A DNA stretch of 64,000 nucleotides from Bacteroidales bacterium (GTDB lineage: Bacteria; Bacteroidota; Bacteroidia; Bacteroidales; UBA7332): NCBI GenBank assembly GCA_028687995.1, contig JAQTZA010000002.1:292217-356216 (forward strand). Reading direction: 5' to 3'. The notes under the pieces are model-generated. The model saw only the letters and a program-made list of their open reading frames with translations. It searched no databases and was not told the DNA's origin. Every line of letters starts with the position of its first letter. Positions within the stretch are counted from its first letter, which is position 1. The position numbers were made by a program, and so were the translations under genes. Of this stretch, positions 17,699 to 27,126 are shown one piece after another.

Positions 17699-19375
17699 CT
17701 AAAGCTGATTTTGTTCAATCAACTTTCCTAGTTTGTTGTACTGATCGTACAGCAGTTGATATTTTTCTGAATTTTCAGAGATTGGCTGGTAGGTTTTTTC
17801 AAATCCCTGTCCCATTTTTACTTGCGCTAAATGGATGTTTGGGTAGATTCCGGCAGCTACGGCGGCATACATCGCCGAACCTAGCGCGCAGGTTTGCTCA
17901 GACGCGACGACTTGAATTGGCACGTTTAGTACGTCCGCTAGAATTTGCATGATAAATGGCGATTTCTTAGCAACACCTCCCAATGCCACGACACCATCGA
18001 TCCGTACGCCTTCGGCTTTGAATCGATCGACAATCGCTTTTGACCCAAACGCTGTGGCTTCGACCAACGAGCGGAAGATTCGTGGAGCGTCTGAACCGAG
18101 GTTTATTCCCGAAATAACACCTTTCAGATTCTGATTTGCATCCGGTGTTCGACGTCCGTTCATCCAATCGAGAGCTACAAGGCCACTCTCCCCGATCGAA
18201 ATTTGTTCTGCCTCTTCGGTTAGTTTTTTGATTAAATTATCCGAAATCTCAGATATTAGTTTTTCTCTGACTTCTGAATTGACTGTTTGCGTTGAAGCTA
18301 AGATATTTTCGACAGGCCACATCAATACCTTCTTAAACCACGCATAGATGTCGCCAAAAGCAGATTGACCAGCTTCCATACCATCCATTTCGTTTACGAT
18401 AGAGCCGTCCACCTGTCCACAAATGCCTTTCACAACTATATTTTGCATGTCTAATCTTGGAGCAATCAGCATATCACACGTCGAAGTACCAATTACTTTG
18501 CTGAGATAGTACGGTTTGATTTCTCCACCAACTGCTCCGATGTGTGCATCGAACGCGCCACTGCCTACAACCACCGATTCATTTAGGCCAAGACTGTCTG
18601 CCCACTCTTTCGACAACGTTCCGACAGCAATATCGGCCGTAATTGTTTCGGCTGGCATATTGTGTTTGAAATCGACAAGCTGAGGATCGAGATTTACAAG
18701 AAATTCATCAGATGGAAATCCGCTCCAATCGGCGTGCCACAAGGCTTTGTGTCCTGCGGCACATCTGCCTCGTTTCATTGTCTTCGGATTGGTTTTGCCA
18801 GTTAGTAGTGCTGGCATCCAATCGCAATGTTCTACCCACGAAAAGCAGTTATTGGCTATCGATTTATCTTCGCGAATAATGTGCAGAACTTTCGACCAAT
18901 ACCATTCAGAAGAGTATATTCCGCCAGAATATTTGCTGAAATCGAGTCCTCCCCAATGGCGGCACAAATGATTGATTTCGTCTGCTTCTTTAATCGCTGT
19001 GTGATCTTTCCAAAGGACAAACATCGCATTCGGATTTGTTTCAAATCCCTTTTTCAACGCCAGTGGTGTTCCGTCGGAGTCAACCGCAATCGGTGTAGAT
19101 CCAGTGGTGTCGATGGAAATTCCTTTGACCAAATGTGTTGCATCGGGACATTGGCGAATGATTTCGCGAATCGTAAACTCCAGTCCTTCAATATAGTCCA
19201 ACGGGTGTTGACGAAATTGGTTTTTGGAAGGATTGCAGTATAATCCATTTTTCCATCGAGGGTATTCGAATACTGATAGTGCAATCTCTGCGCCACTTTC
19301 GGCATCAACCAACAGTGCACGCACAGAGTCAGTTCCGTAATCAACGCCAATGACGTAGTTTGGTTGGTTGTTCAT
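17699..19375 (-). CDS. araB: Ribulokinase, FGGY family (AraB type)
   Basis: The protein has 558 residues, the length of AraB and longer than fuculokinase or rhamnulokinase (~480). It phosphorylates L-ribulose, and in characterised AraB proteins also D-ribulose, at O5. AraB-diagnostic segments are seen in order: 'GVDYGTDSVRALLVD', 'IDTTGSTPIAVD', 'NPNAMFVLWKDHT', 'GGIYSSEWYWSK', 'GAFDAHIGAVGG', 'VIGTSTCDM', 'GQSAFGDIYAWF', 'LDWMNGRRTPDANQNLKG'. It starts 16 bases after fucI, so the two are surely co-transcribed. That pairing is odd: AraB normally goes with AraA and AraD, and FucI with FucK and FucA. No epimerase or aldolase gene is present in the window. With D-ribulose as substrate the product, D-ribulose 5-phosphate, would enter the pentose phosphate pathway directly. 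Confidence 0.88.
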   Translation of the reverse strand: MNNQPNYVIGVDYGTDSVRALLVDAESGAEIALSVFEYPRWKNGLYCNPSKNQFRQHPLDYIEGLEFTIREIIRQCPDATHLVKGISIDTTGSTPIAVDSDGTPLALKKGFETNPNAMFVLWKDHTAIKEADEINHLCRHWGGLDFSKYSGGIYSSEWYWSKVLHIIREDKSIANNCFSWVEHCDWMPALLTGKTNPKTMKRGRCAAGHKALWHADWSGFPSDEFLVNLDPQLVDFKHNMPAETITADIAVGTLSKEWADSLGLNESVVVGSGAFDAHIGAVGGEIKPYYLSKVIGTSTCDMLIAPRLDMQNIVVKGICGQVDGSIVNEMDGMEAGQSAFGDIYAWFKKVLMWPVENILASTQTVNSEVREKLISEISDNLIKKLTEEAEQISIGESGLVALDWMNGRRTPDANQNLKGVISGINLGSDAPRIFRSLVEATAFGSKAIVDRFKAEGVRIDGVVALGGVAKKSPFIMQILADVLNVPIQVVASEQTCALGSAMYAAVAAGIYPNIHLAQVKMGQGFEKTYQPISENSEKYQLLYDQYNKLGKLIEQNQL

Positions 19376-19391
19376 TTTATCTTACTATTTT

Positions 19392-25915: not shown

Positions 25916-25941
25916 AGATCAGGAGGGTTTAAATTGTCGTT

Positions 25942-27126
25942 TTATTCATTTCCCCACAATGTTGATTTACTTCCTTTACTCTTTCTCCATTCGTGTCTCC
26001 ATCTGTGAACATCGAGGAAATTAATCAAAGGTTTAGGTTGTCTCATTTCTTTAGTAGGAGCAAGAGGGATTGCCGTTGCCTCGCTCTGATACCAGTAAGC
26101 TACTGATGCTAGATCTAGCGTCAAATTATTATCATGACCATGCTCAATGGTTGCTTTAAGACTTTTATCAAAGAACACAGGATCGCTGATAAAAAATCGG
26201 TAAACGTGCGTTCTCCCTAACCAACCCATATCGTTGTTGACCCGAGGATAACCGAAATATGGACTTGAAAAAAGTTCTTTTGGCGACCAAGATGTGTTGA
26301 ATAGATCTTCCGTGCCGGTTCCAACGATTGAAGGTATTTTTTCGCCATCTATAAACCACATATCATCGCCTTCGCCATACCAAATAGGTGAAGGGCAGTG
26401 TATGTAGTAATTAATCCCGACAAAATGTCCTTTGCCTTTAATGTCTGCAAAAATATAATTGTCTTTACCCGTTTTATTTGCTTTTTGTTGACCTACCAAA
26501 TTCCATTCAGTTTCACCTTCGGGTAAAGCCTCTGTTAGTTCGTGATTATACCACGCATGAAATCGTCCCATATCTTTGGATATTTTATCCATTTGTACAT
26601 AGTCGATGTTGAAGTATAAGTGATCTATGGGGATATCATTCTGGTTCTCAATTTCTATGCGTGCCCCTTTTGCAAATGGCATAGCGAAGTAACAATTTAA
26701 ACCTGTCCCATTTCCTGGGCCAGCAATAATTGGAAAAGAGTTATAGCTGTATTGTTCGTTCCAACCTTGTCCAAAGAAAGGACCGATGGGTGATTCAACT
26801 GAAGGGAATGTGTTGCCATCCCAATACATTCTGATTATAATGTCGTTTCGCATTAGTTTGTCTGGTCCGGGCGCAATAGTAATCCAGATGTGATTGATTA
26901 CACCAGATCCATTAATATTGGCAATTATTCTCTTTTCTCCAGGAAGAATATGTGGTATGTAATCAGCATTTCCACCTGTAGTATCTGTAGAACTGATTCG
27001 CTTGTTTTGAATTCCACTTCTTATTTTAGCTAAGTCGTAGAATTCATTTGACATCGTTTGCGCTACAATAAGAGTAACATTTATACTAACTAAAACAAAA
27101 AAAACTGCAATTAATAATCGTTTCAT
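25942..27126 (-). CDS. GH172 (former DUF2961) glycoside hydrolase
   Basis: The protein has 394 residues, with a signal peptide at 1-~22. The jelly-roll family once called DUF2961 is now GH172. Its characterised members are an alpha-D-fructofuranosidase and alpha-D-arabinofuranosidases from D-arabinan degraders. Hallmarks seen: 'GSGVINHIWITIAP', 'SPIGPFFGQGW', 'YFAMPFAKGARIEIEN', 'WYGEGDDMWFIDGE' and 'VGTGTEDLF'. The two candidate catalytic glutamates, Glu252 (GEGDD) and Glu273 (GTED), are 21 residues apart, the spacing I recall for the family nucleophile and acid/base. It is the first gene of the unit with GH92 and lacI, under its own operator-promoter. Substrate prediction rests on context. 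Confidence 0.87.
   Translation of the reverse strand: MKRLLIAVFFVLVSINVTLIVAQTMSNEFYDLAKIRSGIQNKRISSTDTTGGNADYIPHILPGEKRIIANINGSGVINHIWITIAPGPDKLMRNDIIIRMYWDGNTFPSVESPIGPFFGQGWNEQYSYNSFPIIAGPGNGTGLNCYFAMPFAKGARIEIENQNDIPIDHLYFNIDYVQMDKISKDMGRFHAWYNHELTEALPEGETEWNLVGQQKANKTGKDNYIFADIKGKGHFVGINYYIHCPSPIWYGEGDDMWFIDGEKIPSIVGTGTEDLFNTSWSPKELFSSPYFGYPRVNNDMGWLGRTHVYRFFISDPVFFDKSLKATIEHGHDNNLTLDLASVAYWYQSEATAIPLAPTKEMRQPKPLINFLDVHRWRHEWRKSKGSKSTLWGNE

What the first reader, a model, noticed from the sequence alone, without database searches (positions are those of the whole stretch)
17699..27126. FucI + AraB-type ribulokinase + GH172: candidate D-arabinose (D-arabinan-type) utilisation locus
fucI is followed by araB and not by fucK/fucA, and no AraD epimerase is near. 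FucI-family enzymes convert D-arabinose to D-ribulose, and AraB accepts D-ribulose, giving D-ribulose 5-phosphate, so the two genes alone make a complete D-arabinose route. The same locus encodes GH172, a family with alpha-D-arabinofuranosidases, and GH92 alpha-mannosidase. Mannose and D-arabinofuranose occur together in mycobacterial lipoarabinomannan. The link to that polymer is speculation; the D-arabinose link is a reasoned inference.
Basis: partly seen in the sequence, partly recalled or inferred. Interest (0 to 1): 0.78.

Follow-up and report, generated by a model that had tools for sequence, protein, structure and literature searches.

The report
D-arabinose operon with borrowed ribulokinase
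A bacterium, likely of the Bacteroidota, carries an operon predicted to free the rare sugar D-arabinose from a glycan and to burn it with a fucose isomerase plus a kinase that descends from the L-arabinose pathway, a combination that laboratory evolution of E. coli also arrived at and that nature seems to have assembled several times.

Summary
In detail: a minus-strand run of eight genes (12525-27126) holds GH172, GH92, a LacI-type regulator, DUF6786, FucI, an AraB-type kinase, a cellobiose phosphorylase and a six-hairpin glycosidase. The D-arabinose reading is well supported but not new in kind: the GH172 is 70% identical to Dysgonomonas gadei DgGH172c, a proven exo-alpha-D-arabinofuranosidase of a D-arabinan locus (PUL42) that also holds a fucose isomerase. 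This kinase is the genome's only pentulose kinase (the other FGGY kinases are RhaB and GlpK), and no protein passes as FucA or AraD, although one double-domain aldolase is unresolved. The lipoarabinomannan link is not supported: no GH183 match in the genome. New here: (1) the kinase lies inside the araBAD-associated AraB clade, apart from the kinases of other D-arabinose loci (p-AU 0.0015), so AraB was recruited more than once; (2) a palindrome, GCTAAAwCGwTTTAGC, stands at seven places within 65 kb and recurs beside the related LacI in D-arabinose loci of other genomes, tying in a SusCD pair outside the window; (3) DUF6786 is rare in the order, goes with GH172 and has a mutarotase fold. Against: the kinase keeps the L-ribulokinase-type Phe before the catalytic Asp, and the place of FucI in its tree is not firm.

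The parts
25942..27126 (-). GH172 (DUF2961), predicted exo-alpha-D-arabinofuranosidase; catalytic E252, E273 and adjacent D274
   Evidence: nearest PDB 4kq7 (B. uniformis BACUNI_00161) and 8ah3 (chain name DG02479, taken as DgGH172c); 256 of 367 aligned residues identical to 8ah3. E233/E254/D255 of DgGH172c (PMC10115798, section read; its printed 'D225A' is taken as D255) align with window E252/E273/D274. Only GH172 in the genome.
23537..25915 (-). GH92, alpha-mannosidase family
   Evidence: 582.6 bits; nearest PDB 6f8z, putative alpha-1,2-mannosidase
22470..23498 (-). LacI-type regulator, candidate repressor of the regulon
   Evidence: Its four closest relatives among fetched loci of other genomes (455-459 bits; next 303) lie beside AraB-FucP-DUF6786 and have the same palindrome nearby
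22438..22453 (.). Operator-like palindrome ACTAAATCGATTTAGC between LacI and DUF6786-FucI-AraB
21214..22371 (-). DUF6786 (PF20583), mutarotase-like fold; predicted D-arabinose mutarotase
19392..21239 (-). FucI-family isomerase (D-arabinose to D-ribulose predicted); likely start Met at 21167; metal ligands E363, D387, H553
   Evidence: (best PDB 3a9r, D-arabinose isomerase, 974.8 bits; L-fucose isomerases 873-913)
17699..19375 (-). AraB-type FGGY kinase (D-ribulose to D-ribulose 5-phosphate predicted)
15216..17657 (-). GH94, cellobiose-phosphorylase type
   Evidence: 8ho7 cellobiose phosphorylase 1258 bits
12525..15209 (-). Six-hairpin glycosidase, family unresolved; last gene of the run
   Evidence: PF17389 38.1 bits, PF22422 35.2 bits
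27209..27224 (.). Operator-like palindrome ATTAAAACGATTTAGC upstream of GH172
27483..27498 (.). Operator-like palindrome GCTAAAACGATTAAGT upstream of the divergent plus-strand operon
   Evidence: identical 16-mer at C15:279641 outside the window
27736..28701 (+). GH43-like, first gene of the plus-strand operon
   Evidence: PF04616 34.0 bits, cut-off 32.2
28753..30168 (+). Second isomerase, 'L-fucose/L-arabinose isomerase family', substrate unknown
   Evidence: (AraA model 51 bits, far below its 622 cut-off; SftI 39.9 of 700)
30176..31987 (+). GlcNAc-2-epimerase-like protein with a T9SS sorting tail
32044..36777 (+). 1577-aa T9SS-sorted protein, no catalytic Pfam family at E 0.001
36809..38764 (+). 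GH97
38788..40203 (+). MFS_2 sugar transporter
40236..42632 (+). GH94, nearest to N,N'-diacetylchitobiose phosphorylase
   Evidence: 8bou 766 bits; best cellobiose phosphorylase 563
42642..45635 (+). GH106, alpha-L-rhamnosidase family
51829..51869 (.). Two operator-like palindromes (51829-51844, 51854-51869) upstream of a protein of about 352 aa with a weak sorting-tail match

Best explanation
This is a predicted D-arabinose utilisation operon in which a secreted GH172 would release alpha-D-arabinofuranose, the FucI-family isomerase would turn D-arabinose into D-ribulose and the AraB-type kinase would make D-ribulose 5-phosphate for the pentose phosphate pathway, likely under the LacI-type regulator of the same operon acting at GCTAAAwCGwTTTAGC palindromes. 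Shown by sequence: the gene set and order, the GH172 orthology and conserved catalytic residues, that this is the genome's only pentulose kinase and that no protein passes as FucA or AraD, the place of the kinase inside the araBAD-type AraB clade, and the clustering of the palindromes over 65 kb of contig C15. Inferred: the substrate, that FucP (C15:274.5 kb, left of the window) imports the free sugar, that DUF6786 interconverts its anomers or ring forms, that SusC/SusD left of the window import the glycan, and that LacI binds the palindromes with D-arabinose or a product as effector. The glycan is probably a D-arabinofuranose-bearing heteroglycan (mannose, beta-glucosyl or HexNAc and rhamnose linkages) and not mycobacterial arabinan.
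For: GH172: 256 of 367 residues identical to 8ah3/DgGH172c, catalytic residues kept; [quoted passage not shown] Neighbourhood: 25 of 76 GH172 loci (many cut by contig ends) hold FucI within about 10 kb, 12 of 76 hold DUF6786, and in none of the 76 is an ORF's best match, among the reference proteins used, E. coli FucK, FucA, AraD, AraA or RhaB (phmmer E 1e-10). Of 28 AraB-type kinases over the cut-off in 149 genomes of the order, 24 have AraA/AraD beside them; of the other 4, one is this one, one lies within 4 kb of FucI (G008), one within 4 kb of a FucI-like fragment, DUF6786 and GH172 (G088), one next to an AraA-like gene (G022). Genome: one FucI; FGGY kinases are this one, RhaB and GlpK. 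DUF6786 with GH172 in the order, own genome left out: 7 of 9 DUF6786 genomes against 12 of 139 others, Fisher p 5.8e-6. E. coli AraB has similar kcat on D- and L-ribulose, and removing araB slows evolved E. coli on D-arabinose (PMC6452873, passages). Operator: 12 strand-matches in the window at up to 3 mismatches against a shuffle mean of 1.35, 0 of 100 shuffles as many; 7 of 9 places in the genome at up to 2 mismatches lie in C15:279641-344085 and only those 7 have the CG core; sites in 5 of 5 non-own loci whose LacI scores 300 bits or more against the window's LacI (two of the five from near-identical strains), in 1 of the other non-own loci, in 0 of 40 AraA/AraD loci.
Against: The kinase keeps Phe275 before the catalytic Asp, as 38 of 39 AraA/AraD-linked kinases do, whereas all 17 other D-arabinose-linked kinases (13 of them one clade) have Ile/Leu; so it may still prefer L-ribulose. 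A 432-aa double-domain class II aldolase on C10 is unresolved and might do the work of FucA or AraD. A quick FucI tree with two very distant rows put the window FucI on the FucK/FucA side (98); careful trees without them put it at the base of the GH172-linked clade (97/92, 98/93), but grouping it with a same-genus FucI from an L-fucose-like operon is not rejected (p-AU 0.153, or 0.074 with two more rows). GH172 has Ser where 64 of 72 relatives have Cys near the active site. The operator motif was read off this window; the reversed-pattern control matched more often genome-wide (23 against 12 strand-matches; its positions were not shown), so the clustering, not the count, is the evidence. No SusCD lies in the window itself, and cellobiose phosphorylase has no obvious place in a D-arabinose route.
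Confidence: 0.77

Rival explanations
1. The operon is for L-arabinose: the second isomerase (28753-30168, AraA-like) makes L-ribulose and the AraB-type kinase keeps its old job, while FucI serves L-fucose or another sugar.
For: The kinase sits in the araBAD clade (100/100) and keeps F275; an AraA-like isomerase starts 1.6 kb from GH172 in a divergent operon with the same kind of palindrome upstream; a 432-aa double-domain aldolase scores 135 bits against an L-ribulose-5-phosphate 4-epimerase model.
Against: No protein passes an AraD cut-off among the Aldolase_II proteins of the genome, and the unresolved one sits in the rhamnose region, not here; the second isomerase is far below the AraA cut-off (51 of 622 bits); FucI and the kinase are adjacent in one run of genes with an alpha-D-arabinofuranosidase orthologue.
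Confidence: 0.11
2. The operon is for L-fucose or another FucI substrate such as L-galactose or D-altrose.
For: FucI enzymes also take L-fucose; the nearest FucI by identity (76%) is a same-genus copy beside FucP, an alcohol dehydrogenase, an amidohydrolase and an aldo-keto reductase (names by eye).
Against: No FucK in the genome and no protein that passes as FucA, no fucosidase family among the operon's Pfam hits, GH172 present.
Confidence: 0.06
3. The GH172 is an alpha-D-fructofuranosidase and the locus handles fructans or difructose anhydrides.
For: Founding GH172 activity of B. dentium alphaFFase1 (PMC8605356, passages); the Cys said there to clash with fructose in BACUNI_00161 appears to be Ser here (the equivalence is my reading).
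Against: Close orthologue of DgGH172c, about 450 bits nearer than alphaFFase1; fructose needs neither FucI nor AraB.
Confidence: 0.05
4. The locus degrades mycobacterial lipoarabinomannan or arabinogalactan.
For: GH172 and GH92 in one operon; DgGH172c acts on both polymers.
Against: No GH183 (DUF4185) match in the genome (12 of 149 genomes have one); GH94, GH97 and GH106 do not obviously fit. GH116 was not tested.
Confidence: 0.08

Closest known systems
Dysgonomonas gadei PUL42, D-arabinan locus (PMC10115798)
   Same: GH172c orthologue and a fucose isomerase in one locus; other Bacteroidales loci found here carry FucI-GH172 and DUF6786-FucP-AraB
   Different: No GH183 in this genome, one GH172 instead of three, SusC/SusD and FucP end 16 and 29 kb from the operon's near end, kinase from another AraB lineage than the other D-arabinose loci sampled (PUL42's own kinase was not seen), extra GH92/GH94
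Microbacterium arabinogalactanolyticum D-arabinan cluster (PMC10509167)
   Different: Gram-positive with ABC transporter, GH183 and GH116; the PDB exo-alpha-D-arabinofuranosidase 8ic8, taken to be its GH172, is a distant relative (106 bits)
FucI + AraB route in laboratory-evolved E. coli (PMC6452873)
   Same: AraB recruited to phosphorylate D-ribulose made by FucI
   Different: There through araC and fucR mutations with FucK still essential; here the two genes are adjacent and FucK is absent
E. coli fuc operon and Bacteroidota fucI loci with FucK/FucA
   Same: FucI family; FucP elsewhere in this genome
   Different: No FucK/FucA beside it; the predicted exit is the 5-phosphate, not aldol cleavage of the 1-phosphate
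araBAD
   Same: Kinase lies in its clade
   Different: No canonical AraA and no AraD

Membership tests
GH172 exo-alpha-D-arabinofuranosidase (DgGH172c type) | Full-length orthology to DgGH172c | tested here: met
   641 bits, 256 of 367 identical to 8ah3
GH172 exo-alpha-D-arabinofuranosidase (DgGH172c type) | Catalytic Glu pair and adjacent Asp | tested here: met
   E252, E273, D274
GH172 exo-alpha-D-arabinofuranosidase (DgGH172c type) | Hydrolysis of alpha-D-arabinofuranosides | not testable with these tools
   -
FucI-family isomerase acting on D-arabinose | Three FucI domains and metal ligands Glu, Asp, His | tested here: met
   (E363, D387, H553 align with E. coli E337, D361, H528; ligand roles recalled)
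FucI-family isomerase acting on D-arabinose | Member of the GH172-linked FucI clade | tested here: inconclusive
   97/92 and 98/93 in careful trees, rival placements p-AU 0.153 and 0.074, quick tree disagrees
AraB (L-ribulokinase) by descent | Above the TIGR01234 cut-off and inside the AraA/AraD-linked clade | tested here: met
   645 against 583 bits; 100/100
D-ribulokinase-like signature seen in D-arabinose loci (found here, post hoc) | Ser before GG(I/V)YSSEW | tested here: met
   S150; Ser in 16 of 18 D-arabinose-linked kinases including this one, Glu in 35 of 39 AraA/AraD-linked
D-ribulokinase-like signature seen in D-arabinose loci (found here, post hoc) | Ile/Leu before the catalytic Asp | tested here: not met
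   F275; 17 of 18 D-arabinose-linked kinases have Ile/Leu, this one is the exception
D-arabinan PUL of the D. gadei PUL42 kind | GH183 endo-D-arabinanase | tested here: not met
   No PF13810 match in the genome
D-arabinan PUL of the D. gadei PUL42 kind | GH172 plus FucI in one locus | tested here: met
D-arabinan PUL of the D. gadei PUL42 kind | SusC/SusD pair | tested here: inconclusive
   None in the window; a pair at C15:283.6-288.5 kb has the palindrome upstream
fuc operon | FucK and FucA | tested here: not met
   FGGY kinases are AraB, RhaB, GlpK; no Aldolase_II protein passes as FucA
araBAD | AraD | tested here: not met
   No Aldolase_II protein at the locus; none in the genome passes as AraD, one unresolved
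Aldose 1-epimerase (mutarotase) fold, DUF6786 | Mutarotase beta-sandwich fold | tested here: met
Aldose 1-epimerase (mutarotase) fold, DUF6786 | Catalytic His/Glu pair in the mutarotase positions | not tested
   -

The most novel reading that the evidence does not exclude
Bacteria have made D-ribulokinases from L-ribulokinase again and again by parting AraB from AraD and setting it beside FucI, GH172 and a new D-arabinose mutarotase (DUF6786), under a LacI regulator with its own operator; two residues (Glu to Ser before GG(I/V)YSSEW, Phe to Ile/Leu before the catalytic Asp) mark the change, and the window's kinase, with the first but not the second, is caught half-way in a 65-kb regulon for a D-arabinofuranose glycan that is not mycobacterial.
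Probability: 0.35. Interest if true: 0.72.

Novelty: new variant of a known kind. Interest (0 to 1): 0.5.

Why it matters
D-Arabinose loci with GH172 are known since 2023, but how their kinase arose, how they are regulated and what DUF6786 does are not told in the passages and sections of the papers seen here. If right, the same metabolic solution that E. coli finds in the laboratory (FucI plus AraB) has been fixed repeatedly in nature, with a short residue signature that two point mutations can test, although a survey of the FGGY family saw each specificity arise only once (PMC3245297, passages); and a domain of unknown function gains a concrete, assayable role. It also says that GH172 loci in Bacteroidota need not be aimed at mycobacterial arabinan, which opens the question of which other glycans carry D-arabinofuranose.

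Tried and rejected

Paper searches: GH172 with D-arabinofuranosidase 3 papers; 'D-arabinose, fucose isomerase, ribulokinase' 2; DUF6786 0; 'D-arabinose, Bacteroides, fucose isomerase' 9; 'L-ribulokinase, D-ribulose, specificity' 8; 'D-arabinan, Bacteroidetes, polysaccharide utilization, D-arabinose' 1; 'D-ribulose, D-arabinose isomerase, ribulokinase' 1; 'ribulokinase, 2-ketopentoses' 1; 'D-arabinose, mutarotase, operon' 10, 8 listed. Seen of papers: PMC10115798 outline, passages, sections 13 and 19; PMC10509167, PMC8605356, PMC3245297, PMC6452873 passages; PMC8551123 and PMC3637100 passages, not used; others listings only. The structure of the second isomerase was not predicted.

The FucI tree used 57, then 55 and 54 rows (L116, L117, then L094 dropped); the AraB tree 63 rows. 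Rows come from fetched loci with a match of 60 bits (FucI) or 400 bits (AraB) or more and over 450 aa; rows identical over a 240- or 300-residue stretch were merged; labels by gene neighbourhood within 11-12 kb of the fetched stretch. In the AraB column scan L079, L119 and L168 were left out of the 36 reference rows; the counts in this report are, where they are included (39 AraA/AraD-linked, 18 D-arabinose-linked, 6 unlabelled: 2 Phe, 4 not, at the Phe275 position).
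Full report
What is there. The window is G000:C15:292217-356216 of a 3.56-Mb genome; its right end is the end of the contig. On the minus strand, reading from 27126 down to 12525, lie GH172, GH92, a LacI-type regulator, DUF6786, FucI, an AraB-type kinase, a GH94 of the cellobiose-phosphorylase type and a six-hairpin glycosidase, with gaps of 6-98 bp if FucI starts at Met25. A divergent plus-strand run starts at 27736: GH43-like, an 'L-fucose/L-arabinose isomerase family' protein, a GlcNAc-2-epimerase-like protein and a large protein with T9SS tails, GH97, MFS_2, a second GH94 nearest to chitobiose phosphorylase, GH106. 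Further proteins, most with T9SS tails and some with PKD domains, follow to 60.5 kb. No SusC/SusD pair was found among the window ORFs scanned.

The sugar. The GH172 matches the PDB chains 4kq7 (685 bits) and 8ah3 (641 bits) over its length, alphaFFase1 at 193 and an exo-alpha-D-arabinofuranosidase (8ic8) at 106 bits. 8ah3 bears the name DG02479 and is taken as DgGH172c (HMPREF9455_02479 in PMC10115798), one of three GH172 of PUL42 shown to release D-arabinose from arabinogalactan; [quoted passage not shown] Catalytic residues are kept. So the pairing of FucI with GH172 is known; 'kinase' occurs 0 times in the main text of that paper. The second paper speaks of a putative isomerase and kinase.

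The exit. In this genome, reported 99.99% complete, there is one FucI and three FGGY kinases: this one; RhaB on C10 beside RhaA; glycerol kinase on C3. So the AraB-type kinase is the only pentulose kinase of the FGGY family. Aldolase_II domains occur only in two C10 proteins of the rhamnose region: a RhaD-type bifunctional aldolase-dehydrogenase and a 432-aa double-domain protein that stays below the cut-offs of the FucA (136 of 264), 4-epimerase (135 of 251) and 3-oxo-tetronate-phosphate decarboxylase (178 of 250) models. D-Ribulose 5-phosphate needs neither FucA nor AraD. In E. coli, AraB has similar kcat on D/L-ribulose and D/L-xylulose, and evolved strains used it next to FucK for D-arabinose (PMC6452873, passages).

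The same set elsewhere. Of 76 GH172 loci from named genomes, 25 hold FucI and 12 DUF6786, and in none is an ORF best matched by E. coli FucK, FucA, RhaB, AraA or AraD (E 1e-10, ORFs of 90 aa or more). In L135 (Petrimonas), L136 (Proteiniphilum), L137 and L139 GH172 genes are followed by DUF6786-FucP-AraB; DUF6786-FucP-AraB recurs in L138, L157-L162 and L165-L167. In 149 genomes of the order, own included, FucI occurs in 34, GH172 in 20, DUF6786 in 10, DUF4185 in 12 (not in this genome). DUF6786 goes with GH172 (7 of 9 against 12 of 139, own genome left out, p 5.8e-6), FucI with GH172 more weakly (9 of 33 against 10 of 115, p 0.009), DUF6786 with FucI (5 of 9 against 28 of 139, p 0.027). Of 28 AraB-type kinases over the cut-off, 24 have AraA/AraD beside them, none of these 24 with FucI, DUF6786 or GH172 in the fetched stretch (L171 has a 58-bit permease match); the four others are this one, G008 (FucI within 4 kb), G088 (FucI-like fragment, DUF6786, FucP, GH172) and G022 (AraA-like gene).

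Descent of the kinase and the isomerase. In a careful tree of 63 kinases the window's kinase pairs with that of a Bacteroidales MAG (L140; 100/99), whose genome also holds FucI-GH172 on another contig (L004), inside a set of 13 dominated by AraA/AraD-linked kinases (9 of 13; 100/100). Holding it with the 13 kinases of the DUF6786-FucP-AraB type costs 116 log units (p-AU 0.0015; the group was named after a first tree was seen), and starred branches force at least 5 changes of the D-arabinose label. So the kinase appears drawn from araBAD stock separately. A post hoc column scan finds Glu before GG(I/V)YSSEW in 35 of 39 AraA/AraD-linked kinases and Ser in 16 of 18 D-arabinose-linked ones (window: Ser150), and Phe before the catalytic Asp in 38 of 39 against Ile/Leu in 17 of 18 (window: Phe275, the exception). 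That this Asp is the catalytic base is recalled. The 18 are not independent: 13 are one clade. The FucI of the window stands at the base of the GH172-linked clade in careful trees (97/92, 98/93), not firmly.

The regulon. Between LacI and DUF6786 lies ACTAAATCGATTTAGC. The pattern GCTAAAWCGATTTAGC gives 12 strand-matches in the window at up to 3 mismatches (shuffles: mean 1.35, largest 6) and, at up to 2, nine places in the genome, seven of them in C15:279641-344085, the only ones with a CG core (binomial p 2e-11, or 6e-8 given one of the sites; the region was not named beforehand). The reversed pattern matched 23 times against 12, so the number of sites is not in excess, only their clustering. 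Sites stand upstream of GH172, of the plus-strand run, of DUF6786-FucI-AraB, of a protein at 51.9 kb, and, outside the window, of an AXE1-esterase/GH13 pair and of SusC (L125 6141 and 9884). In loci of other genomes, with CG core and up to 2 mismatches, sites occur in all five whose LacI scores 300 bits or more against the window's (L111, L136, L139, L159, L166; L136 and L159 are from near-identical strains by their FucI), in one other (L163), and in none of 40 AraA/AraD loci (455 kb); 184 non-own loci were scanned, some overlapping. The L125 stretch also encodes FucP (343 bits, cut-off 280), a second DUF6786 with a signal-peptide-like start (by eye) and two further LacI-type genes (one scanned), so which LacI binds which site is open.

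Verdict. What is added is the separate recruitment of AraB, the operator-marked regulon, and the role proposed for DUF6786. On checking, the finding that the third kinase is GlpK strengthens and the unresolved C10 aldolase weakens the case; I moved the confidence from 0.78 to 0.77 and the L-arabinose rival from 0.10 to 0.11.

Noticed in passing
G000:C15:274455-291000 (L125), left of the window: FucP, a second DUF6786 with signal-peptide-like start, two LacI-type genes, then AXE1 esterase, GH13, SusC, SusD with two copies of the palindrome: likely the transport half of the regulon.
   Followed up: partly
28753-30168: Isomerase of the AraA/FucI superfamily far from characterised ones (51 bits to AraA, 39.9 to sulfoquinovose isomerase SftI), with close relatives in marine-type Bacteroidota names (Algibacter, Aquimarina); second isomerase near the same palindromes, substrate unknown.
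   Followed up: partly
AraB alignment, window residues 150, 220, 275, 436: Positions that differ between AraA/AraD-linked and D-arabinose-linked kinases; Phe before the catalytic Asp is almost diagnostic in this sample, and the window is the exception.
   Followed up: partly
L111 6828-7739 and L159 8111-9037: A dihydrodipicolinate synthase/NanA-like aldolase (by eye) follows the LacI gene in two D-arabinose-type loci, at one of the palindromes; role unexplained.
   Followed up: no
window 27126-25942, Ser after E273 (motif LFNTSWS): Ser where 64 of 72 other GH172 rows have Cys, 3 Ser, 5 Gly; possibly the Cys said to exclude fructose in BACUNI_00161.
   Followed up: partly
L104 (same-genus genome): FucI with GntR-type regulator, FucP, Zn alcohol dehydrogenase, amidohydrolase and aldo-keto reductase, without FucK/FucA in the stretch (names by eye): an L-fucose-like operon of unclear logic.
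   Followed up: no
G000:C10:1228-10673 (L121): Rhamnose operon (RhaA, RhaB, RhaD-dehydrogenase) with a 432-aa double-domain class II aldolase and lactate-utilisation-like genes (by eye).
   Followed up: partly
window 3064-11812: A 2079-aa ORF and an ORF with an Rhs-core-like motif (by eye) left of the operon; not searched.
   Followed up: no
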